This document shows positions 53,404 through 64,000 of a DNA stretch of 64,000 nucleotides, one piece after another; position 1 is the stretch's first letter, and each line of letters opens with the position of its first letter. Under the pieces are notes generated by a model. The model saw only the letters and a list, made by a program, of their open reading frames with translations, made no database searches and was not told the origin of the DNA. The stretch covers positions 4,207,501 to 4,271,500 of the forward strand of contig NZ_CP145886.1 of assembly GCF_038049935.1 (NCBI RefSeq), in the 5' to 3' direction. The stretch comes from Rossellomorea sp. y25. GTDB taxonomy: Bacteria; Bacillota; Bacilli; Bacillales; Bacillaceae_B. The position numbers and the translations under genes are program-made.

Positions 53404-53507
53404 GGGACGGAGGGACAGGTCCCTTGTCCCAGGGTCTGAATTGAGACGCGGTGGTTTGTTCCCTCGTCTCTCTCACTTTTAGGACGGGTGTCTTGTCCCC
53501 ACGTCCC
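53404..53507. repeat. REP-like composite
   Basis: Head GGGACAGGTCCCTTGTCCC, middle with GTTCCCTCGTC, tail GGACGGGTGTCTTGTCCCC and GTCCC. It begins at the base after the isomerase stop codon. Confidence 0.75.
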
Positions 53508-53588
53508 TATTAAACAACTGTTTAAAGGTCTAAAAAGGAGAATCAAGCCACTTCGAGAACCTAATCAAACGTTTGTTTAGTGGGCCAT

Positions 53589-53684
53589 AGGGACAGGTGC
53601 CTTGTCCCAGAACCAAAATAAAGACGAAGGGATGAATCCCCTCGTCGCTTTTATGTTTGGGACAGGGTGCTGTCCCAAAGTCCC
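53589..53684. repeat. REP-like composite
   Basis: Head GGGACAGGTGCCTTGTCCC, hairpin GACGAAGGGAT..ATCCCCTCGTC, tail GGGACAGGGTGCTGTCCC. It lies just past the stop of the MFS gene and may act as its terminator. With the copy at 53404 it forms a close tandem pair. Confidence 0.75.
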
Positions 53685-53691
53685 TATTTTA

Positions 53692-54927
53692 TTACGCTTC
53701 TATTTCGATTGCTTTATCAAACTCGACTTTTCTAACATCTTTGAAATAGATCACCCATGTATTTAAGATGAACACTAAAGATGCTAAGAGAATAAGAGTC
53801 CATGTCATGCCAAGCGCTTCAGACAGCGGGCCGGCCAATACGAATCCCACTGGCATAAATACAAAGGAAACAAAGGAATCCAATGAACCGATTCTGGAGA
53901 GCATGTGCTCGGGTACCTTCTGCTGAACAAGTGTATCCCAGAACACCGCACTGATAATAATACTTGCGCTGGCAAACATAGCCACGATCATGATCAACCA
54001 GTGTGAAGCCGGTCCAATCAGCATGAGAATCTCAAGTGGCACTAAAACGGTCATTAAGGTAAATGCAAACTTTAATGGATTCTTGGGCTTTAAATTATGA
54101 GATAATAAACCTCCAAGTAAGCCGCCAACCGATGCAGCGGTTAAAATTAATCCCCACTTCTTCGGACCATCTAATTGATCTATAAGGGCTAGTGGCCCCA
54201 GGACATTAAATGCTGCAACTGCAAAATTCAACAGGGAGAATGTGACAAGGGATTTCCATATCCAAGTATGACTTCGGGCTACTTTTATCCCTTCTTTTAA
54301 ATCTTGCCAATAGGAGTTATCTACGCTGGTTTCCGACTTGTATTTAGGTAAAACCATAAGCATGAGGAGCAGGCTTACAAAGAATGTCATGGCATCAATG
54401 AAAAAGATTACGTCAAATCCGACCAATACGACCAATATCCCCGCTATTGCAGGACCTGCTATTTCAAATATGCTATTCACGATGCTTAGAAGTGAATTAG
54501 CCTGTTGAAGCTGGTTTTTTTTAACAATTTGTGGGATCAATCCACCTGATGCAGGGGAGTGAAAGGCACTTACTGCCCCATATAGTAATGCCGAAGCTAC
54601 TAAATGCCATAGTTCAATGGAATGCGTGAAAAATAAATAAGCAATCAATAAATGGTTGGCCCCTTGGAGCAGGTCTGAACATATGAGAATGGCCTTTCTT
54701 GAAATACGATCGGCCCAAACCCCTCCAAACATGACAAACACCACTCTTGAAACCCAAAGTGCCCCCAGCACGAGACCGAGACTGGTTGCGCTTCCTGTAA
54801 CCTCCAATACGGCAAATGTAATGGTGACAGGTATAAGGGTATTACCAATAGAAGAAATGACATGTGACAGCCAAAACGTAAGAAAGTTCAGATCTTTTAG
54901 AACATGTGTAGTTAAATGAGTTTTCAT
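53692..54927 (-). CDS. MFS exporter of the RiPP-type cluster
   Basis: A 411-residue MFS protein with about 12 membrane segments, of the EntS/MFS_3-like efflux type (FWLSHVISSIGNTLIPVTITFAVLE, GVWADRISRKAILICSDLLQG, FHSPASGGLIPQIVKKNQLQQANSL). Its start overlaps the preceding JmjC gene by 4 bases, making it the last gene of the precursor operon. It probably exports the modified peptide or confers self-resistance; no ABC-type peptidase exporter is seen in the cluster. Confidence 0.88.
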   Translation of the reverse strand: MKTHLTTHVLKDLNFLTFWLSHVISSIGNTLIPVTITFAVLEVTGSATSLGLVLGALWVSRVVFVMFGGVWADRISRKAILICSDLLQGANHLLIAYLFFTHSIELWHLVASALLYGAVSAFHSPASGGLIPQIVKKNQLQQANSLLSIVNSIFEIAGPAIAGILVVLVGFDVIFFIDAMTFFVSLLLMLMVLPKYKSETSVDNSYWQDLKEGIKVARSHTWIWKSLVTFSLLNFAVAAFNVLGPLALIDQLDGPKKWGLILTAASVGGLLGGLLSHNLKPKNPLKFAFTLMTVLVPLEILMLIGPASHWLIMIVAMFASASIIISAVFWDTLVQQKVPEHMLSRIGSLDSFVSFVFMPVGFVLAGPLSEALGMTWTLILLASLVFILNTWVIYFKDVRKVEFDKAIEIEA

Positions 54928-55712
54928 TGAATTCCTCCTGCGGTTGATAGACTGGATGTACCTTTCATTTCCTTTAGCTTGTTGAGTACTTTGAGCCAGG
55001 CTTCCTTCTTCCTTTTCTCAAGATAGATCTCTGCAAGATGTACGTTACTTTCGTTGAGAAAATTCCCCGTGACGGAAACCGTTGGTTCGAGGTTAACTAC
55101 TTCATGTGCCCAACCACTCGGTGTGAAAACCAAATCTCCCGGAAACTGAAGAACTTCCACTTCGAATCGGGAAGAAGGAAACTCGGATGTATATCCATCA
55201 TCTAATATATTCTTGGCAATAGATTCTGAAGGAGATAGGAACCTCCACTTTTTCGTTCCACTTAACAGTAAATTCCATGCACTGCTCATCATTACATCAA
55301 TGTGAAGGGCAGTAGCGGATGATTGGGGACCTAGAAATAACCAGAGCCAGGGTGGCTTCACTCCTTTGGGTAAAGAGTCTAACCAATTAGAAAAAGTTGG
55401 AGGGAGCTCGATTTTCTCCATGATCTCGTCTAACATTTCCTCGTTACGCAGATTGGACGCATACCATGGTTCCCTATCACACGTTCTTTTCATATACTTC
55501 AAATATTCTTCTATGGTAAATTCCCGGGTCTCCCGCTTCCCTTTTTGGCTTGCTGCAATTAAGGAAGCACTATGTTTCGGAGACTCAATAGTATTCGATA
55601 AAAGATCGTAACATGCCGGCACTGATAAATGCCTTCTTATTATAAATGGCTGGTTCAATGCATCTAATGAGATTTCTTCCTCTTTGGTCAATTCGTTAAC
55701 GGTGATAGTCAT
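54924..55712 (-). CDS. JmjC/cupin-8 Fe(II) oxygenase-like protein
   Basis: A 262-residue protein of the classical JmjC hydroxylase size. PPWLWLFLGPQSSATALHID gives HxD near 150, and GDLVFTPSGWAHEVVNLEPTVSVTGNF the distal His; RWEF-type motif appears as KKWRFLSP. These bind Fe(II) in 2-oxoglutarate-dependent hydroxylases of peptides and proteins. It overlaps both neighbours by 4 bases. It differs from the other three oxygenase-like proteins of the cluster in size and lacks their C-terminal extension. Likely hydroxylates a precursor residue. Confidence 0.85.
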   Translation of the reverse strand: MTITVNELTKEEEISLDALNQPFIIRRHLSVPACYDLLSNTIESPKHSASLIAASQKGKRETREFTIEEYLKYMKRTCDREPWYASNLRNEEMLDEIMEKIELPPTFSNWLDSLPKGVKPPWLWLFLGPQSSATALHIDVMMSSAWNLLLSGTKKWRFLSPSESIAKNILDDGYTSEFPSSRFEVEVLQFPGDLVFTPSGWAHEVVNLEPTVSVTGNFLNESNVHLAEIYLEKRKKEAWLKVLNKLKEMKGTSSLSTAGGIQ

Positions 55713-56926
55713 TTCATACCTCCGTGTACTTTACACGTACAAGCAATTTCGATACTTTTGTTCAAATAGAGTAACTTAATCAATTGTAACGCTACAGTTT
55801 CTTCTCCTACTTCATCTACTATGTCCTTTAAAGAGAACTTTCGAGTTTTGTGAATAAAGTTCACTGCTTTTTCAATTACTGGATCATAATTCAATGTACA
55901 TTTCCTGCCTCGTAGATAAAGGATTAGTTCACTACCCACTTTTTTTATTGGTATTTCAGTATTCTTCCGTACTTTAAAACAGGACTTTGTAAAATCAACC
56001 GAAGCCGGCTGTTTTATACCAGTTGGATTTCCTATAAAGCCACCATTGCTTTTGATTTTATTTCGCTGGTCGAGTACTCCTTGGAAGAGTAATTCCCCAA
56101 GATCTTTATAGTTTATATTCAATTCTTTTTCTATTATGGAATGAAATTGTTCCTCAATAGAATTTTCTTTTGACCAGGATAAGGTTAAAGATTCGGCTGG
56201 CTGATGCTTCAAATTAGCTATCCCTGAACGAACTAACGAGGAAGCGCTGCTTGGAAACAAAGCCGTCCCCAGTGTAACTGAAAAATCCGGGGTATAAAGC
56301 AAATGATACATTTTGCTTGGAATGAAAATCATATCACCGGGTTCGAGTACAACATGTACAGCAGATTTTTCCCACTCTGATCCAGACTCCAACAGATCTG
56401 TTCTCCCAGTGATACTTGGATCTGGTTCTGATTCCCAGTACCAAATCTCTTTATTCGATGGTCCACAATGAATCAGGAAGATAGGTTCGTTATCCGGGTG
56501 AATACCAAATGGAGTATATCCATAGTTACCAAATATCGCATAAGAATCCGCACCCATTACCAGGTCCTTTTCACCCAAATTAGCCAGCACCTTAGAAGTA
56601 AGGATCTCATGTACTTTTTCACTATAATCCGTTATCCGGTCAAATAATACGCAGAATTCGTCATCTCCAAGCCAATGAGAAAACCATTGTTCCAATGAAT
56701 CATAATTCCCTACTGGAGAGTCTTTCAATTTATTTCTTAACCATGGCTTGACTGCATCCTTAACATTAATATTCATTTGGGGAATTCTCTCACTATTTTG
56801 CACTTCCCCCACAAAATCAGTGTAAATTTCATCCCAATCCATCTTTTCCAGAAATGATTTCCAAACGACTGGGCGTGTAAAGTGACCGGTTTCTTCCTCC
56901 AGATTATATAATGCGGTTATACTCAT
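55709..56926 (-). CDS. Cupin/JmjC-like oxygenase with C-terminal winged-helix-like domain (paralogue 3)
   Basis: A 405-residue protein. YTPFGIHPDNEPIFLIHCGP gives HxD near 165-170, and LEPGDMIFIPSKMYHLLYTPDFSVTLG the distal His, so the Fe(II) triad is intact. A C-terminal segment (about 325-400; ELILYLRGRKCTLNY, then FSLKDIVDEVGEETVALQLIKLLYLNKSIEI) looks like a winged helix. It is paralogous to the genes at 56.9-58.2 and 59.4-60.6 kb. It overlaps both neighbours by 4 bases. Predicted to modify the precursor peptides; specific residue unknown. Confidence 0.8.
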   Translation of the reverse strand: MSITALYNLEEETGHFTRPVVWKSFLEKMDWDEIYTDFVGEVQNSERIPQMNINVKDAVKPWLRNKLKDSPVGNYDSLEQWFSHWLGDDEFCVLFDRITDYSEKVHEILTSKVLANLGEKDLVMGADSYAIFGNYGYTPFGIHPDNEPIFLIHCGPSNKEIWYWESEPDPSITGRTDLLESGSEWEKSAVHVVLEPGDMIFIPSKMYHLLYTPDFSVTLGTALFPSSASSLVRSGIANLKHQPAESLTLSWSKENSIEEQFHSIIEKELNINYKDLGELLFQGVLDQRNKIKSNGGFIGNPTGIKQPASVDFTKSCFKVRKNTEIPIKKVGSELILYLRGRKCTLNYDPVIEKAVNFIHKTRKFSLKDIVDEVGEETVALQLIKLLYLNKSIEIACTCKVHGGMK

Positions 56927-58176
56927 TTTCCGTCCTCCTTTACGATTAAGCCCTTATATTGAATGGCACAATCAACCAAGAACGCAGCCACTTCGGAAGA
57001 TAGTACGTTTGTCATTTCCTCAATGAGACCCGAGTACGTTATCTCGTTCTTACCATCCATTATTTCGATACACTGAGCAATGCCGGGTATATTATTAAGC
57101 TGGAGAAGCCTCCCGCGAATAAATAATGTGATCTTTTCTTCTTCAATGATGTGAAGGATAGGAAAACATGAAGGTTTAATCAATGTTGCATGACTCAAAT
57201 CATTAGTAGTATCCATTTCTTTCAGGATAGGTTTGTGTATAGCGTAGCCATTGCTTTTTAGTAGAAGATGATAAAAATAAGATCCTTGCTTTATTCCCTT
57301 TTCAAGATCATCCCGATGAGACTTTGTTATGGAATCAATTTGCTCATATATACTATTTTCCAAGTTTTCTTCTTGTACAAAATAATGAGGCTGATTGCCG
57401 TTTAGTTTTGTTAGCATCTTTATGCCTTCTGTCCCAACCGTCCCTGCGGAAGAAGGATAGAGGATGAATCCTAAAAATGAAGAAAACCCTACGTTCTTAA
57501 ATACATGAAAATCTCCCTTCGGAATAAACAGACAATCACCGGGTTTCAAAATATAATGGGTAGCGTGTTCTACAAGGTTTTCAGGATCAAAACGGCGATC
57601 TGAACTTCCGGTTAACCTTACGTAATCCTCTCTCTTCCATATCCAGACGTGCTTTTCTTCCGGTCCAAGATGAAAGATCAAGGAATGGTCTGGATCTTCA
57701 TGTATCCCAAAAGGCGTATATCCGGCATTCGCAATAAAGGCATACGCATCTACTCCTGCAAGCGGAACACCAACATGGTCAATAATCGGTCTGATTACTT
57801 CAGACGTTACTTTCGTATGTAGCCTGTCATTCCATTTCATGACTCCATTAAAGGTAAAGCAGTAATCTTCGTACCCGATCGTTTCTTTAATCCATTCATC
57901 CAAATCCTCTTCATGGTCAAAACGTGTATTCCATAGTTTTTCGAGAAGATCATAACGTTGGCCATTATCAATGAAAACCCTTAAATTTGCTTTTTCTTTA
58001 TGACCTTCCACTTTGGTAATGGCATGTTTCAGTTCAGTCGTTACTTGCTCTGGATTTAGCAGCATATCGGGTATCAATGCATAGTCTTCTAAGCCATTCG
58101 TTTCTTGAATCAACCTTTTTATCCAATTATCAGCTACGATCGGATCAACGTTATTTGGTTTGGTAACCAGTTTCAT
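56923..58176 (-). CDS. Cupin/JmjC-like oxygenase with C-terminal winged-helix-like domain (paralogue 2)
   Basis: A 417-residue protein. YTPFGIHEDPDHSLIFHLGP supplies HxD and LKPGDCLFIPKGDFHVFKNVGF the distal His. The C-terminal part (KITLFIRGRLLQLNN, then ITYSGLIEEMTNVLSSEVAAFLVDCAIQYKGLIV) parallels that of its paralogues. The start at 58176 follows GAGGTGAAGAAA; the GTG at 58185 is part of that site. It overlaps the arginase-family gene by 26 bases. Confidence 0.8.
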   Translation of the reverse strand: MKLVTKPNNVDPIVADNWIKRLIQETNGLEDYALIPDMLLNPEQVTTELKHAITKVEGHKEKANLRVFIDNGQRYDLLEKLWNTRFDHEEDLDEWIKETIGYEDYCFTFNGVMKWNDRLHTKVTSEVIRPIIDHVGVPLAGVDAYAFIANAGYTPFGIHEDPDHSLIFHLGPEEKHVWIWKREDYVRLTGSSDRRFDPENLVEHATHYILKPGDCLFIPKGDFHVFKNVGFSSFLGFILYPSSAGTVGTEGIKMLTKLNGNQPHYFVQEENLENSIYEQIDSITKSHRDDLEKGIKQGSYFYHLLLKSNGYAIHKPILKEMDTTNDLSHATLIKPSCFPILHIIEEEKITLFIRGRLLQLNNIPGIAQCIEIMDGKNEITYSGLIEEMTNVLSSEVAAFLVDCAIQYKGLIVKEDGK

Positions 58177-59389
58177 TTTCTTCACCTCTATATGTTTTAT
58201 TATGTTGATTTAATATCAGTTGGGTAGCCAAGTTGGCTGCTGATAATGCAGCTAAATTAGGCTTCTTATCTCCGGCACACACTTCTACGAAATCTGCGCC
58301 TACCACATTGAAATGGGTACTCAAGTACTCCATGAGGGAAGACGCCTGATGATAGGAGATTCCCCCGATAACCGGCCATGCCACTTCTGGTGCATGAACA
58401 GGATCAAGCACGTCTACATCGAATGAAATATAAATTGGAGTATTTCTATCCAGGGTTGAAAAGATCGAGGTCGCATTTTCCATAGAATGAATATCATTCG
58501 ATGAATACACATACAAACTGTTCGATAATCCCATTTCATTCGTAGACTTTCTTTCAAACTGGCGGATGCCCACTTGGATTAACTTATAAAAGTTCTTCTC
58601 TTTCATTAATTCACTGAACACATTTCCAATCGTAAGACCATTTGTATTTCTTAATTGGCTTTCATAACGGTCAGTATGTGCATCAAAATGGATGATCGTT
58701 AGGTTTTCATACTTATCCATAAGGGTTGAGACGACTGGGTAAGTCACCGTGTGATCCCCTCCCAGAACAATCGGCTTCAGCTGGTGATCAGACATTTTAT
58801 CAACGATATAGCTTACTTTTTTGTTCACATCTTCTATGGTCTCAATCCGCGAATCATAGCTTACATCTCCTGCGTCATAAGGCGTAACGCTTTTCGCTTT
58901 GAAGCTTCTTGAGTAATTCATATCGAGTAAATACTCTTCATCAGAGGGAATGGGATCAAAGAGTTTGATATTGGATCTTATTAATGCTGTTCCATTAACG
59001 GGACTCATATTCCCTTTATGTTCGTAGGATACAGGAATGCCTAAGAAACAAAATCGATGATTGAATCCCTTGTTTTTCAATTGGTTGAGATCCAACTTCT
59101 CACCGATGGTATCCTTAGGTTGTGTAACAAGTCCATTCCTGTAGAGAGAATGCACTTCCTGAGGGATTATGATAGACTCACCCAGCAATAACTCCAGTAC
59201 TTTTCCAGTCAATCCCTTTTCTTCTAATTCTTCAAGGCTACTGGGCTCTTTCACCATCTCGATCACTTTGCTGAAATGAAGATTCGTTTGGATTTTCTTT
59301 TTCTCAAAGGGAAGGATTATGTTCAGAACTTCATCTTTTCGTTCAACTGCAATAGTAGGGTTGAGGACAAAATGTTTAAGCATACTCAT
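58151..59389 (-). CDS. Arginase-family enzyme, candidate peptide arginase
   Basis: A 412-residue ureohydrolase. The catalytic domain (about 120-410) has all manganese ligands: VLGGDHTVTYP, IHFDAHTDRY and ISFDVDVLDP. It carries about 105 extra N-terminal residues (VERKDEVLNIILPFEKKK, then SSLEELEEKGLTGKVLELLLGESIII) with the pattern of a winged-helix leader-binding domain. Peptide arginases known from RiPP clusters (OspR of landornamide) turn Arg of a precursor into ornithine. The three precursors next door each contain two or three Arg, so this role is likely. The start at 59389 follows GAGGTGGGAATTC and overlaps the preceding gene by 14 bases. Free agmatine or arginine as substrate is the alternative. 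Confidence 0.82.
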   Translation of the reverse strand: MSMLKHFVLNPTIAVERKDEVLNIILPFEKKKIQTNLHFSKVIEMVKEPSSLEELEEKGLTGKVLELLLGESIIIPQEVHSLYRNGLVTQPKDTIGEKLDLNQLKNKGFNHRFCFLGIPVSYEHKGNMSPVNGTALIRSNIKLFDPIPSDEEYLLDMNYSRSFKAKSVTPYDAGDVSYDSRIETIEDVNKKVSYIVDKMSDHQLKPIVLGGDHTVTYPVVSTLMDKYENLTIIHFDAHTDRYESQLRNTNGLTIGNVFSELMKEKNFYKLIQVGIRQFERKSTNEMGLSNSLYVYSSNDIHSMENATSIFSTLDRNTPIYISFDVDVLDPVHAPEVAWPVIGGISYHQASSLMEYLSTHFNVVGADFVEVCAGDKKPNLAALSAANLATQLILNQHNKTYRGEENETGYQTK

Positions 59390-60620
59390 GAATTCCCACC
59401 TCAAGGACCCCGCACTTATATAAGGTTTTACATAGTAAATAGATGGAGTCCTCATTGACCTGATCATGAAATGTCTTTACTAACTCTTTAACGTTTAAAG
59501 AGCATTCCATATTTAACTTCTTCATTATTTCAAGAATGACATCATGCTTGACAAGGCTAATCATATTAGCCCTCGCAAACACATCCAGACCATCCTCCTT
59601 TTCCAACACCAGCAGCTTGAAGGGAGTAGTCAATGAAATCGAGCTATCTTTCCAAGCAGCAAGAGCAGGAAATTCCTTTTCAGTTGTTTTAGTAGGCACT
59701 CTGAACCCCAAATTACTTCTGATTCGAAGAACATACTGAATAATGGCTTCTTCTGCAGGATCACTGGATTTAATAATTTCTTTTAATGGTATAATCCCGT
59801 TTTTTTGATTATTTTCCACGTGAAGCGTTTGTTTAATGATGGATTTTATATCTATGGAGCCAGGATCACCTAATTCATGTCGGGCCAGTTCCATTGCCCG
59901 TTTAAATAGATCATTTTCATCAAATCTAATCATGGCGACTGCTAATGAAACACTGAAATCAGTATTCTCCCCAACGTGAAAATATTTACTGGCTGGAAGG
60001 AAAAACCAATCATTTTCCGCTATTGTGTTTTTCTGGGAATGAGAGAATAATTGTGAGGAAGGATTAATCAATGGTTCATATGAACCTCTGACTTTCTTAT
60101 ATGTTTCTGGCTCCCACAAATACATATATCTTTCGTTGGGTCCCAGATTTAAATGGAGGGCCTCTGAAATCTCATCAATGTGGACCCCAAATGGAGTATA
60201 CGTCGTATTTCCGATAAAATATGTAACCTCTAAATGCAACAACTCCTCATTGAGTTGCCCTTTGGCTGCTTCGAACAGGCTCCCGCACCAATTAACTATA
60301 GGGTTATACCATTTTTCGACCCGGTTGATAACCACAAGAAAATCCTGACCTTTAAATGTCCTTCTTCCCCATTCCTCTATTTCCCCGAAAGAATGAGGAG
60401 GATTCAAAAGAATATATTCTTCTAAATCCTCACGTGATTCACCATTAACATAAATGCGTAGGTTATTCCTATAAGAATCATCTGTTCCGGCGGATTTGGC
60501 CATCGATAAGAGTGTATGAAATGGAGCTTCATAGACGTTTGTAATGTCCAATTGATTCTTCAATGCTGCCGGTTCCATAAAATTCTTTGTAGATGCTTGC
60601 AACTCTTGAAATAGACTCAT
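59376..60620 (-). CDS. Cupin/JmjC-like oxygenase with C-terminal winged-helix-like domain (paralogue 1)
   Basis: A 414-residue protein, the first enzyme gene after the precursors. YTPFGVHIDEISEALHLNLGP gives HxD near 167-170 and DWFFLPASKYFHVGENTDFS the distal His. C-terminal segment: FKLLVLEKEDGLDVFAR, then CSLNVKELVKTFHDQVNEDSIYLLCKTLYKCGVLEV, winged-helix-like. It starts after TAAGGAGGAGTAATAA. One arm of the 24-bp inverted repeat lies 22 bases before the start codon, so its translation may depend on RNA folding around the precursor genes. Confidence 0.8.
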   Translation of the reverse strand: MSLFQELQASTKNFMEPAALKNQLDITNVYEAPFHTLLSMAKSAGTDDSYRNNLRIYVNGESREDLEEYILLNPPHSFGEIEEWGRRTFKGQDFLVVINRVEKWYNPIVNWCGSLFEAAKGQLNEELLHLEVTYFIGNTTYTPFGVHIDEISEALHLNLGPNERYMYLWEPETYKKVRGSYEPLINPSSQLFSHSQKNTIAENDWFFLPASKYFHVGENTDFSVSLAVAMIRFDENDLFKRAMELARHELGDPGSIDIKSIIKQTLHVENNQKNGIIPLKEIIKSSDPAEEAIIQYVLRIRSNLGFRVPTKTTEKEFPALAAWKDSSISLTTPFKLLVLEKEDGLDVFARANMISLVKHDVILEIMKKLNMECSLNVKELVKTFHDQVNEDSIYLLCKTLYKCGVLEVGIHEYA

Positions 60621-60641
60621 TTATTACTCCTCCTTAGAAGT

Positions 60642-60665
60642 TTAAACCAAAGATCGAGGGCCACA
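60642..60665. repeat. Left arm of a perfect 24-bp inverted repeat around the precursor genes
   Basis: The arm begins TTAAACCAAAGATCGAGG and ends GGCCACA; its exact reverse complement is at 61159-61182. The 493 bases between contain only the three precursor genes. Confidence 0.9.
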
Positions 60666-60698
60666 GTTCCTCATATCCCGGTGATTATGTAGATTCTA

Positions 60699-60815
60699 TT
60701 AGTGACCTACATGTGTTACTGGACGCGCTGCCAGTTCTTCATCTCTTAATTCAGAGAAACTGATATCAAGATCCTTCAATGATACTTTTTCTTCGTTCTT
60801 TTTCATTTCTGCCAT
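60699..60815 (-). CDS. RiPP-type precursor peptide, copy 3
   Basis: 38 residues, begins MAEMKKNEEKVSLKDLDI and ends DEELAARPVTHVGH. It differs from copies 1 and 2 only at residue 19, Ser instead of Arg. GGAGGAAATCATC precedes the ATG. Arg 24, Arg 31, His 35 and His 38 are candidate modification sites; the leader is probably the Lys/Glu/Leu-rich first half. Confidence 0.85.
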   Translation of the reverse strand: MAEMKKNEEKVSLKDLDISFSELRDEELAARPVTHVGH

Positions 60816-60847
60816 GATGATTTCCTCCTATTCTATTAGTGAGTGTA

Positions 60848-60964
60848 TTAGTGACCTACATGTGTTACTGGGCGTGCTGCCAGTTCTTCGTCTCTTAATT
60901 CAGAGAAACGGATATCAAGATCCTTCAATGATACTTTTTCTTCGTTCTTTTTCATTTCTGCCAT
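60848..60964 (-). CDS. RiPP-type precursor peptide, copy 2
   Basis: 38 residues, identical in protein to copy 1 but with synonymous changes in the DNA. GGGAGGAAATCATC precedes the ATG. Start codons of the three copies are exactly 149 bases apart, so the array arose by tandem duplication. Confidence 0.87.
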   Translation of the reverse strand: MAEMKKNEEKVSLKDLDIRFSELRDEELAARPVTHVGH

Positions 60965-60996
60965 GATGATTTCCTCCCATTCTATTAGTGAGTGTA

Positions 60997-61113
60997 TTAG
61001 TGACCTACATGTGTTACTGGGCGTGCTGCCAGCTCTTCGTCTCTTAATTCAGAGAAACGGATATCAAGATCCTTCAATGATACTTTCTCCTCGTTCTTTT
61101 TCATTTCTGCCAT
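60997..61113 (-). CDS. RiPP-type precursor peptide, copy 1
   Basis: 38 residues; begins MAEMKKNEEKVSLKDLDI, then RFSELRDEELAARPVTHVGH. Arg at 19, 24 and 31; His at 35 and 38. No Cys, and few Ser/Thr, so lanthionine-type chemistry is unlikely; this fits arginase and oxygenase enzymes. GGGAGGGGAATCTC precedes the ATG. First-transcribed copy. Confidence 0.87.
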   Translation of the reverse strand: MAEMKKNEEKVSLKDLDIRFSELRDEELAARPVTHVGH

Positions 61114-61158
61114 GAGATTCCCCTCCCTTCAATACAATTTTCGGGTAAGAGTTTTTAT

Positions 61159-61182
61159 TGTGGCCCTCGATCTTTGGTTTAA
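61159..61182. repeat. Right arm of the 24-bp inverted repeat
   Basis: Exact reverse complement of 60642-60665, lying 46 bases upstream of the first precursor start and 60 bases after the 194-residue gene. Confidence 0.9.
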
Positions 61183-61241
61183 CCTATTTCTTAATTGAGT
61201 GTACTCCGTAAGTAAAATGTTTTCTTTTTACCCCCGCTAAC

Positions 61242-61826
61242 TTACAGGGCACTTTTCCCTTTTATCCAATGAAGATAGGCCAAGGGAAGTTTCGAGATAC
61301 CTACTGGGTTCTCTGCAACTATATCTTCCAATTCACCGTGTAATTCCAGAATTCTTTTCATTTCCTTTTTCACTCCTTCACTATCCTTTTTTATTGATTC
61401 CTGCAAGGTCTCCTGGTCATCATCTTTCACCTTCAAACCAAACCCGACTGCAAGAGATGACTTAGATTGTTCCTTGAGCTTGTTCCACTCTTCAACTTCC
61501 AGTGAATGAAAGGGAACTAATGTCTCATTTGAAAAATCAAACCAATAAACCCCAGTCTCCCCTACGCCTTTTACTATGTTTTCTCTTAATAAAACAACGA
61601 TAGGCTGGAGGTTTAATTGATTTAATTCTTCCATAACTTCATACAACATCTGAGCTAAGGTATTTAAGTGTACCAGTGGGATTTTTTCAACTTCAGTTCC
61701 CGATTGTTTTTTAGTAAATCCGATGGTGTCTTTAAATATTTGAAAGGGAAATATTCCTTTATTGTCCAAGCTCCTTTCAGACTTCTGATAGCGAGGATCT
61801 GTTTGGTTTCCAATCTCACTCGTCAC
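61242..61826 (-). CDS. Unknown 194-residue protein at the head of the RiPP-type operon
   Basis: A soluble, Glu/Lys-rich protein with no motif I recognise; recognisable stretches are VYWFDFSNETLVPFHSLEVEEWNKL and a C-terminal helix-rich part ending LPLAYLHWIKGK. Start is GTG with AGGAGGT 11 bases upstream, a rather long spacing. It is on the same strand, 128 bases ahead of the precursors, and after the quorum-sensing genes, so it may be an accessory, regulatory or self-protection protein of the cluster. Confidence 0.6.
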   Translation of the reverse strand: MTSEIGNQTDPRYQKSERSLDNKGIFPFQIFKDTIGFTKKQSGTEVEKIPLVHLNTLAQMLYEVMEELNQLNLQPIVVLLRENIVKGVGETGVYWFDFSNETLVPFHSLEVEEWNKLKEQSKSSLAVGFGLKVKDDDQETLQESIKKDSEGVKKEMKRILELHGELEDIVAENPVGISKLPLAYLHWIKGKSAL

Positions 61827-62348: not shown

Positions 62349-63638
62349 TTATTGATAGATTTTGGGAGCCTCTTTTACCTTATTGTCATTTTTTAATGCA
62401 ATCTGATAGTACTTTGCCGCCATTTTATATGCATTCACATTATAATAATGGTCGCCTAGCGTGACTGCATGCTTTTTTGCCAACAAGAATTGCTGATGAT
62501 CCAGAGAGAAGTGAATGAGTTGCTGCATTTCTTTCTCATAGTTATAATCATCCCTGCGCACTTTGTATAATTCAGCTACTAATGCATGTATATCTACATA
62601 TAAATAGCGCAGATCCAACGTTTCAACAATTTCTATGGCTTCATTTAAGTAGGTATTGGCCAGATTCCATTCTTTTAACTCAGAATATACTTCTACTAAA
62701 CCTCTTAAAGAATAAATTCTTTCTTTATCATTCCCTTTATGTATAGTAAGACTCTTCTTGAAATGTACAATAGCCTGGTCAAACTCTTTCATCCCTTGAT
62801 AAACTCTTCCATAGTTGTATTCTATCATTCCTTCAAATGTATTATCATGATATTCATCCACCAATGATTTAGCTTTTGAAAGACAGTCTTTCGCCTCTTC
62901 AAACATTTGGTCTAAATGATATTGAACGCCTAAAGTGATGAGCACAGAGATGATATTAGTGGTGTTTTCAAATCGTTTGTATAATTTATAAGCCTTCAAT
63001 GTATAGTGACGACTGATGTCTTGTTTTTTGTTCAACCTCTGCTTGACCAAGCCCAAATTATAATACAAATGAGCCCTTTGAATGCTCTCATCATCTTCCA
63101 TCAATCTGTCCGCTTCTGAATAATAGTCATCAGCTTTATGGAAGTTTTGCTTTTGATAGAAATAGTTTCCGCAGGCGATATAGTAAAACATAGAATCTTC
63201 AGGATAGTATTCGTGTACGCGATCAGGTAATAATTTCAGAGAATTGGTATAGATACGATCCGTATTTTTCATTGAATTTATCCGAACATAATAATGCAAT
63301 AAGACTCCATGGATCTGCAACAGAACAGGTACAGGATGCATCTCCATAGAATGAATCTCTAAAAAGGAGATTTCCCTTTCCGACATATGGTTCGTTACTT
63401 TATAATGGTCAATCGTTTCTTGGATGGTCGCCTCAAAATTGGTAATATCGTTATCTGTTAAATATTCAATGGCTACATCCAGTTTTTCAGAGATTTTATG
63501 TAAAAATGCCTTGGAAGGTTTTATTTTTCCATTCTCTATTCTGCTAAGGTACGTAATGGAACAAATACCTTCCACTAATTCAGACTGATTCATTCCTTTA
63601 TGAATTCGCAATTGCCTTATTCTTTCTGCTAGAAACAA
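62349..63638 (-). CDS. RNPP-type quorum-sensing regulator (NprR-like, HTH plus TPR)
   Basis: A 429-residue protein. The N-terminal Xre-type helix-turn-helix (about 5-60; IRQLRIHKGMNQSELVEGICSITYLSRIENGKIKPS) is followed by at least eight TPR-like repeats (about 130-420), the peptide-binding part of NprR and PlcR. The start codon is TTG with AGAAGGGATGAAACA upstream. A secreted pro-peptide gene follows 122 bases downstream, as with nprR-nprX. The RiPP-type operon on the same strand is the nearest candidate target. It may also act as a phosphatase-like antagonist, as NprR does. Confidence 0.85.
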   Translation of the reverse strand: MFLAERIRQLRIHKGMNQSELVEGICSITYLSRIENGKIKPSKAFLHKISEKLDVAIEYLTDNDITNFEATIQETIDHYKVTNHMSEREISFLEIHSMEMHPVPVLLQIHGVLLHYYVRINSMKNTDRIYTNSLKLLPDRVHEYYPEDSMFYYIACGNYFYQKQNFHKADDYYSEADRLMEDDESIQRAHLYYNLGLVKQRLNKKQDISRHYTLKAYKLYKRFENTTNIISVLITLGVQYHLDQMFEEAKDCLSKAKSLVDEYHDNTFEGMIEYNYGRVYQGMKEFDQAIVHFKKSLTIHKGNDKERIYSLRGLVEVYSELKEWNLANTYLNEAIEIVETLDLRYLYVDIHALVAELYKVRRDDYNYEKEMQQLIHFSLDHQQFLLAKKHAVTLGDHYYNVNAYKMAAKYYQIALKNDNKVKEAPKIYQ

Positions 63639-63682: not shown

Positions 63683-64000
63683 CTACCTTCTATTGGACCT
63701 TGTCCGATCACCGGAGACCTTCTTCCATTTTTCCTTTTCAAGTAACTGAGTTCTTTTATTCGTCTGTCTGTCTAAATAGGCTAGTTCTTTCTGGAACTTC
63801 TTGAAGTTATCATATCGTTTTTGATCCAGCATTCCTTCCTCAATAGCCTGTTTCACACGACAAGCTGGCTCATTTTCATGCCGGCAATCACTGAACTTGC
63901 AGTATTTAGCTAATTCTTCAATATCTGAGAAGCTTTTTGTCATACTATTGTCTACATCCCAAAGTTGCAGCTCTCTCATACCAGGGGTATCAATCAGGAC
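63683..64000 (-). CDS. rsgA: Ribosome small-subunit-dependent GTPase RsgA, C-terminal part (5' end outside window)
   Basis: About 105 residues run to the window edge. They begin with LIDTPGMRELQLWD (G3 motif of the GTPase) and contain the zinc knuckle YCKFSDCRHENEPACRVKQAIEEG, the C-terminal domain of RsgA/YjeQ/CpgA, a GTPase that checks 30S maturation. The typical ending with basic residues (RTRSNRR) is present. Bacilli often carry a second RsgA-like paralogue, so this may be that copy. Confidence 0.87.
   Translation of the reverse strand, partial: VLIDTPGMRELQLWDVDNSMTKSFSDIEELAKYCKFSDCRHENEPACRVKQAIEEGMLDQKRYDNFKKFQKELAYLDRQTNKRTQLLEKEKWKKVSGDRTRSNRR

What the first reader, a model, noticed from the sequence alone, without database searches (positions are those of the whole stretch)
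53692..61826. Candidate undescribed RiPP cluster: three tandem precursors, peptide-arginase-like enzyme, four JmjC/cupin oxygenases and MFS exporter
Three 38-residue peptides (two identical, one with a single change) are followed by enzyme genes joined by 4- to 26-base overlaps. The arginase-family protein has all Mn ligands plus an N-terminal domain not found in free-arginine enzymes. Four proteins keep the HxD...H iron triad. Known: peptide arginases make ornithine in RiPPs (landornamide), and JmjC proteins hydroxylate peptides. Inference: the product is an Arg-to-ornithine and hydroxylated peptide from the C-terminal ARPVTHVGH region. I know no described RiPP with this set, notably three paralogous cupin proteins.
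Basis: partly seen in the sequence, partly recalled or inferred. Interest (0 to 1): 0.95.

Follow-up and report, generated by a model that had tools for sequence, protein, structure and literature searches.

The report
Undescribed arginase–oxygenase modified-peptide gene cluster
A Bacillus relative carries an operon that most likely makes a small peptide, converts its arginine to ornithine, adds oxygen with several iron enzymes and exports it, with an extra copy of a ribosome-linked GTPase next door as a possible self-protection gene.

Summary
Three tandem 38-aa precursors are followed by a tight operon: three cupins, a PF00491 arginase, a JMJD6-like JmjC protein and an MFS exporter. The precursor is a real gene family: codon changes between genomes are mostly synonymous, and relatives sit beside the same kinds of enzyme in several Bacillota and Proteobacteria.
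(1) Core arginine tracks the arginase: 12 of 12 loci with it keep Arg; Pontibacillus lacks it and has Gly.
(2) One cupin, modelled, has the full ribosomal-oxygenase fold (YcfD, NO66), C-terminal winged helix included.
(3) The conserved block starts with an RsgA-type ribosome GTPase, a TPR regulator and a pheromone-like peptide. In the genus, this extra RsgA occurs in 3 of 36 genomes, exactly those with the cluster.
A long inverted repeat with paired changes flanks the precursor array. Best reading: an undescribed RiPP class giving an ornithine-containing, hydroxylated peptide, perhaps acting on the 30S ribosome with RsgA as immunity. Chemistry, product and target are untested; Streptomyces relatives keep Arg without an arginase nearby. 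A 2025 paper on dioxygenase macrocyclisation in RiPPs could not be read and might overlap.

The parts
63683..64000 (-). RsgA-type ribosome small-subunit GTPase, extra paralogue (353 aa); continues outside the window to about 64744
   Evidence: L053:5184-6245; PF03193 over cut-off; cluster-type copy in only 3 of 36 genus genomes; first gene of the conserved block
62349..63638 (-). HTH-TPR regulator (429 aa), resembling regulators that sense peptide pheromones (resemblance recalled)
   Evidence: PF01381 and PF13424; conserved in L017, L018, L019, L047
62062..62226 (-). 54-aa secreted pheromone-like propeptide with conserved DE[SY]QPGP near the C-terminus
   Evidence: same motif in 5 of 5 loci looked at
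61242..61826 (-). conserved 194-aa protein of unknown function
   Evidence: only a sub-threshold DUF7444 match, E 0.0065; conserved in L017, L018, L019, L047
61159..61185 (.). arm 1 of the inverted repeat flanking the precursor array
   Evidence: 27 nt, 96% complementary to arm 2
60997..61113 (-). precursor copy 1
60848..60964 (-). precursor copy 2, same protein as copy 1
60699..60815 (-). precursor copy 3, R19S
60639..60665 (.). arm 2 of the inverted repeat, just upstream of the cupA ribosome-binding site
59376..60620 (-). cupA, cupin/JmjC oxygenase (H147, D149, H215) with C-terminal domain homologous to that of cupB
   Evidence: no Pfam hit; triad invariant in 11 of 11; hhalign 98.1% to the cupB C-terminal domain
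58151..59389 (-). arginase-family enzyme with extra N-terminal domain (residues 1-90) of winged-helix-like topology
56923..58176 (-). cupB, ribosomal-oxygenase-fold enzyme (H162, D164, H227, numbered from the longest ORF)
55709..56926 (-). cupC, JmjC_2 enzyme (H143, D145, H208)
   Evidence: PF08007 E 4.4e-6
54924..55712 (-). JmjC enzyme, JMJD6-like (H137, D139, H203), proposed ornithine hydroxylase
   Evidence: PF02373 E 1.6e-12; JMJD6 E 4.4e-22
53692..54927 (-). MFS exporter
   Evidence: PF07690 and PF05977

Best explanation
This is a RiPP operon of an undescribed class. The ribosome makes a 35-51 aa precursor, in several tandem copies in most of the Bacillota loci. Its leader (a conserved Asp-Leu and a later Glu) is probably gripped by winged-helix, RRE-like domains carried by the modifying enzymes (inferred). 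The PF00491 arginase hydrolyses the conserved core Arg (AARP) to ornithine (supported by co-loss, not shown). The small JMJD6-like JmjC enzyme then hydroxylates that ornithine, as BipG and PbsQ do in biphenomycin (inferred). Three cupins, at least one of ribosomal-oxygenase fold, oxidise other core residues, most likely the histidines of the (N/T)HVGH tail (inferred). The MFS protein exports the product after leader removal by a host protease (inferred; no dedicated protease was recognised in the block). A TPR regulator and its pheromone switch the operon on at high cell density (inferred). The extra RsgA GTPase protects the producer, which would place the target at the 30S subunit (hypothesis, about 0.45).
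Against: No product, mass shift or bioactivity is known. The two Streptomyces loci keep Arg with no arginase in the 17-19 kb held. rsgA is not in the held DNA of Oceanobacillus L020, of the seven proteobacterial loci L021-L027 or of the four Pantoea and Klebsiella loci. Oceanobacillus and Sodalis have the arginase but no JmjC. The winged-helix link of the arginase N-terminus is weak (hhalign 67.6% and 26.8%), and no RRE family was hit. P0186, a core with Arg, could not be tied to any arginase, and P0174 (Photorhabdus khanii, Cys in place of Arg) was not checked for one.
Confidence: 0.74

Rival explanations
1. It is a RiPP operon, but RsgA, the TPR regulator and the 194-aa protein are an unrelated neighbour unit carried along; the product has another target (for example membrane or metal binding).
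For: rsgA is absent from the held DNA of the proteobacterial, Oceanobacillus, Pantoea and Klebsiella clusters. His-rich hydroxylated cores could also bind metals (recalled).
Against: The same block in 4 relatives from three genera; exact co-occurrence in 36 genus genomes; a second, distant association in Streptomyces.
Confidence: 0.35
2. The product is a peptide metallophore: ornithine plus hydroxy-histidine or hydroxy-aspartate residues chelate iron or another metal.
For: Cores end in HVGH, DVGH or DTGH, or carry RHIR; hydroxy-His and hydroxy-ornithine are siderophore ligands (recalled).
Against: No siderophore uptake or Fur-type gene was recognised among the proteins of the block that were scanned; RsgA has no obvious role in metal uptake.
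Confidence: 0.12
3. The arginase-family enzyme acts on a free small guanidine compound, and the Arg/Gly difference in the peptide is coincidence.
For: The nearest fold is agmatinase; the Arg-to-Gly change rests on one well-placed locus (Pontibacillus) plus one unnamed contig; two Streptomyces loci keep Arg without an arginase nearby.
Against: In the 8 genomes searched with the arginase profile, only the six cluster arginases match from profile position 20 or earlier; the others begin at 74 or later. Arginase and precursor are found together in Bacillota and Proteobacteria.
Confidence: 0.13
4. The short ORFs are chance repeats and not a precursor.
For: None beyond their small size.
Against: Mostly synonymous changes, ribosome-binding sites and a conserved family found beside the enzymes in 13 loci.
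Confidence: 0.01

Closest known systems
Biphenomycin / pbs pathway (BipC or PbsE arginase, BipG or PbsQ JmjC/cupin ornithine hydroxylase)
   Same: A peptide arginase and a JmjC-type hydroxylase act on one core Arg; MFS transporter (passages of PMC12707348 and PMC12257519)
   Different: There the arginase is UPF0489/PF12640 and the FRF core is built with an MNIO and a B12 radical SAM enzyme. Here the arginase is PF00491, no MNIO or radical SAM protein is among the operon proteins scanned, and there are three large cupins
Enteropeptin arginase KgrD
   Same: PF00491 arginase acting on a RiPP (abstract and introduction of PMC12703449)
   Different: KgrD needs a thiomorpholine-containing substrate; no enzyme for that was recognised here, and precursor and partners differ
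Landornamide-type peptide arginases (OspR, FlmR, OhkR)
   Same: Arg to ornithine in a RiPP core
   Different: PF12640 family, other precursor types
Ribosomal oxygenases YcfD, NO66, MINA53
   Same: Whole fold of cupB, HxD...H triad; NO66 recognises NHXH (PMC4556315, passages) and several cores here read NHVGH
   Different: 9-14% identity; encoded beside a RiPP precursor; action on a ribosomal protein not tested
JmjC_2 proteins with RRE-like domains noted in RiPP-like contexts (PMC12710340)
   Same: That paper mentions in one passage PF08007 proteins with an RRE-like fold and bacterial homologues in RiPP-like contexts
   Different: No precursor, arginase, RsgA or chemistry is given in the passages seen

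Membership tests
RiPP | short genetically encoded precursor with conserved leader and core next to tailoring enzymes | tested here: met
RiPP | post-translational modification of the precursor | not testable with these tools
   needs mass spectrometry
RiPP | leader recognition by an RRE or equivalent domain | tested here: inconclusive
   strand-strand-strand-helix-helix-helix order in both models; hhalign 98.1% between the cupA and cupB domains, 67.6% and 26.8% for the arginase domain; no RRE family hit
RiPP | leader peptidase or exporter-peptidase | tested here: inconclusive
   MFS exporter present; no protease recognised in the conserved block; one block protein has no known function; the subtilase upstream lies outside the block
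PF12640 peptide arginases | PF12640 domain | tested here: not met
   only PF00491 was hit
Ureohydrolase superfamily PF00491 | fold and six Mn ligands | tested here: met
Ribosomal oxygenase (ROX) fold | JmjC core, dimerisation helices and C-terminal winged helix | tested here: met
Ribosomal oxygenase (ROX) | hydroxylates a ribosomal protein | not testable with these tools
   substrate here is inferred to be the precursor
Biphenomycin family | MNIO, B12 radical SAM enzyme and FRF core | tested here: not met
   none among the operon proteins scanned; core lacks FRF
RsgA GTPase | GTPase motifs and zinc knuckle | tested here: met
   own cluster copy has GSSGVGKS, DTPG, SKCD and the C-x4-C-x-H-x5-C knuckle; PF03193 over cut-off

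The most novel reading that the evidence does not exclude
An undescribed RiPP class spread over at least two phyla, in which enzymes of the ribosomal-oxygenase fold were recruited to hydroxylate a peptide whose Arg is turned into (hydroxy)ornithine. The product attacks the 30S subunit, Bacillota and Streptomyces producers survive through a dedicated RsgA GTPase (a new kind of antibiotic self-protection), and a conserved long-range stem around the precursor genes sets the peptide-to-enzyme ratio.
Probability: 0.35. Interest if true: 0.92.

Novelty: new variant of a known kind. Interest (0 to 1): 0.78.

Why it matters
If right, this adds a RiPP class spanning Bacillota and Proteobacteria, with distant relatives on Streptomyces, Pantoea and Klebsiella plasmids. 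It extends ornithine formation in RiPPs to PF00491 arginases with a possible built-in leader-binding domain, and shows ribosomal-oxygenase-type enzymes serving natural-product chemistry. The RsgA link makes a specific and cheap prediction about target and immunity, which is rare for an orphan cluster.

Tried and rejected
Chance ORFs were rejected. Membership in the PF12640 arginases and in the biphenomycin family was rejected. The arginase ORF start at 59467 was rejected. A published description was sought in ten searches and none was seen in the listings; the library is open-access PMC only and long listings were cut at 20. Two RRE surveys were searched by term: PMC7470986 has none of arginase, cupin, JmjC, Photorhabdus, agmatinase; PMC12710340 has one relevant passage. 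PMC2922099 (passages) describes cupin clusters around a methionyl-tRNA synthetase paralogue, some with an arginase; I judged them another system. Xia et al. 2025, JACS 147:26693 (2-oxoglutarate dioxygenase macrocyclisation in RiPPs) was seen only as a title in a reference list and not read.

More Bacillota clusters were sought in 150 relatives, 397 order, 398 class, 9 Pontibacillus-family, 18 Sutcliffiella-family and 398 phylum genomes (the sets overlap and include the own genome). Beyond loci already known, they gave the Sutcliffiella cluster and one weak hit (G617, E 4.2e-9, not followed). Lysinibacillus and Peribacillus clusters are known only as proteins, so their gene order could not be read. 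The PDB realignment of the arginase model did not cover residues 1-90; no relative of that domain was listed. The RsgA tree is weakly supported: cluster copies do not form one clade there, and it is not used. In the stem test four proteobacterial loci gave no signal (z -1.1 to 0.9), nor did Sutcliffiella (z -0.7), where I had cut the segment at a wrong start; its arms were then read from the DNA. My hand alignment of the Oceanobacillus arms was shifted (11 of 28 paired), whereas one search finds a 16-nt exact stem there. The repeat-peptide clusters of Streptomyces and Nostoc were set aside as a different system. Of the 18 loci, precursors were found in 11 (L017-L027). L028 is cut off at cupB, L029 and L030 gave none that I recognised (a 32-aa ORF at L029:7905 was not followed), and L031-L034 are short weak matches that I did not examine.
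Full report
Observation. The operon is real and lies on the - strand. Precursors at 61113-60997, 60964-60848 and 60815-60699 read MAEMKKNEEKVSLKDLDIRFSELRDEELAARPVTHVGH, twice the same protein and once with R19S, in 149-nt tandem units. Behind them come cupA, arginase, cupB, cupC, JmjC and MFS; a 194-aa protein of unknown function lies ahead of them. With the starts implied by database versions (412 aa arginase; 417 aa cupB) neighbours overlap by 14, 26, 4, 4 and 4 bases. Pfam and PDB comparison gave PF00491 for the arginase (E 9.4e-48), JmjC_2 for cupC (E 4.4e-6), JmjC for the small enzyme (E 1.6e-12, nearest JMJD6) and MFS for the exporter. cupB was below Pfam's cut-off and cupA had no Pfam hit. 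The host is Rossellomorea-like, judged from its nearest protein relatives.

The precursor is a gene family. Between window copy 1 and one copy of each relative, 29 codons show 11 synonymous and 0 nonsynonymous changes (L017), 12 and 2 (Sutcliffiella L047) and 13 and 4 (Pontibacillus L019). A profile of 13 precursors found 57 proteins among 163 candidates, the inputs' own included, with names from Photorhabdus, Photobacterium, Collimonas, Undibacterium, Massilia, Peribacillus and others. Of these 57, 54 keep Arg at the core position; the exceptions are P0174, P0185 and P0201. In the 13-row alignment, Asp, Leu and a later Glu of the leader are invariant. Gram-positive cores mostly read A-R-P-V-(T/N)-H-V-G-H; proteobacterial cores mostly read A-R-P-(V/I)-R-H-I-R.

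Neighbourhoods. A scan of one genome for each of 84,980 species gave 18 loci with a cupB relative. Rossellomorea (L017, L018) and Sutcliffiella (L047) follow the window's order. Pontibacillus (L019) lacks arginase and JmjC, and Oceanobacillus (L020) lacks cupC and JmjC. In Photorhabdus (L022-L025), Photobacterium (L021) and a Neisseriaceae bacterium (L026) the order is precursor, cupA, cupB, a long ORF, JmjC, arginase; Sodalis (L027) is alike but without JmjC. The long ORF is an ABC transporter in the four loci scanned (L021, L022, L026, L027). A 2OG oxygenase follows the arginase in L021 and L026. Plasmids of Pantoea (L049, L073, L074) and Klebsiella (L050) carry arginase, two cupins and an MFS-type transporter, three of the four with a GNAT gene; a divergent small gene there ends GRDR(S/R)DTGH. 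Two Streptomyces plasmids carry a peptide ending GPRQDVGH, two cupins, MFS, a 2OG oxygenase and rsgA.

Arg and arginase. Among 13 loci whose DNA was read (window, L017-L027, L047), 12 have the arginase and all 12 have Arg in the core. The one without it, Pontibacillus, has AAGPVNHVGH. The Pontibacillus genome holds three other ureohydrolases, whose matches begin at profile position 83 or later and so miss the N-terminal domain. In the block comparison its gap falls on the arginase gene, 59397-58152. Two further AAGP precursors (P0185, P0201) share a contig length, 1,747,543, with cupB protein P0134; no arginase in the 120 listed of 359 hits has that length. That is suggestive only. The four Pantoea and Klebsiella loci have both arginase and Arg. 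Against: the two Streptomyces loci keep Arg without an arginase in the DNA held, P0186 (Arg) could not be tied to any arginase, and P0174 was not checked. The JmjC gene occurs in 10 of the 12 arginase loci and not in Pontibacillus, which fits an enzyme acting after the arginase, as BipG and PbsQ do (PMC12707348, PMC12257519, passages).

A larger block and RsgA. The conserved segment runs from window-frame 64859-64744 down to 53680-53737 in four relatives. Beyond it little matches. In L017 TRAP-transporter genes like those at window 50929-48217 recur about 2.5 kb downstream, so that flank may be shared. In L047 the held DNA ends some 300 bases beyond rsgA, so its upstream flank is untested. The block therefore begins with an RsgA-type GTPase, then an HTH-TPR regulator, a 54-aa secreted peptide with DE[SY]QPGP (5 of 5 loci) and the 194-aa protein. 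All 36 genomes of the genus match RsgA; a cluster-type copy at 86-100% identity is in 3 of 36, the next best copies being at most 54%. These are the same three genomes that carry cupB. The own genome has three RsgA genes at full domain length. Linkage also holds for Pontibacillus and Sutcliffiella (59-63% identity) and, at 31-33%, for two Streptomyces plasmids; it is absent from L020-L027 and from the four Pantoea and Klebsiella loci (whole genomes or records for seven of these). A ribosome-assembly GTPase kept as an extra copy in a biosynthetic block suggests self-protection at the 30S subunit. This is inference.

Stem. A 27-nt inverted repeat (96% complementary) encloses the precursor array and ends just before the cupA ribosome-binding site. 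Exact stems are 24 nt in three Rossellomorea genomes, 15 nt in Pontibacillus and 16 nt in Oceanobacillus. Sutcliffiella pairs at 27 of 28 positions of a hand alignment, wobbles counted. Duplex energies lie 5 to 8 standard deviations below 300 base shuffles in window, L017, L018, L019 and L020; Sutcliffiella gave z -0.7 because I cut its segment short. Over six loci the hand alignment pairs 140 of 168 cells, against 43 of 150 to 90 of 162 when one arm is slid. Several pairs change on both sides between lineages, though three of the six rows are near-identical. A role in transcript processing or in the peptide-to-enzyme ratio is my guess; a DNA-level role is not excluded. Four proteobacterial loci tested show no such stem.

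Verdict. No step of the chemistry, no product and no target has been shown.

Noticed in passing
L075, L077, L078, L080 (Streptomyces plasmids) and L052:8728 (Nostoc plasmid): cupB relatives sit beside tandem-repeat peptides such as LKLGMRPG and LKVGVRPDA. In Streptomyces the neighbours are an aminoacyl-tRNA-ligase-like gene, TauD, desaturase, amidinotransferase, DUF3865 and arginine deiminase genes; in Nostoc a lysyl-tRNA-synthetase-like and an ornithine decarboxylase gene. They look like a second, multicore RiPP type with a repeated Arg-Pro core.
   Followed up: partly
L049, L050, L073, L074: Pantoea and Klebsiella plasmids carry a compact arginase-cupin-cupin-MFS-type cluster, three of the four with a GNAT gene, and a divergent small gene ending GRDR(S/R)DTGH.
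   Followed up: partly
L020:7259-7513: Oceanobacillus has one intact precursor and a second, degraded-looking copy, both enclosed by the inverted repeat.
   Followed up: no
L019:6066-6851 and L020:6404-7213: Methyltransf_24 genes next to the precursor in the two Bacillota clusters that lack the JmjC gene.
   Followed up: no
P0162, P0174, P0181, P0188: Photorhabdus-type precursors with altered cores (RQIC, ACPV, SRSVQPI), possibly clusters losing function.
   Followed up: no
window 53404-53680: Short repeated palindromes of the type GGGACAGG...CCTTGTCCC downstream of the MFS gene.
   Followed up: no
L053:6461-9880 (just outside the window): A large subtilase precursor upstream of rsgA, outside the conserved block; a possible host protease but with no evidence of a link.
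   Followed up: no
Photobacterium genome G779: It has two RsgA genes, neither on the contig of its cluster.
   Followed up: no
L029:7905: A 32-aa ORF ending GGVRG just before the cupA relative of Roseibium; could be an unrelated precursor type.
   Followed up: no
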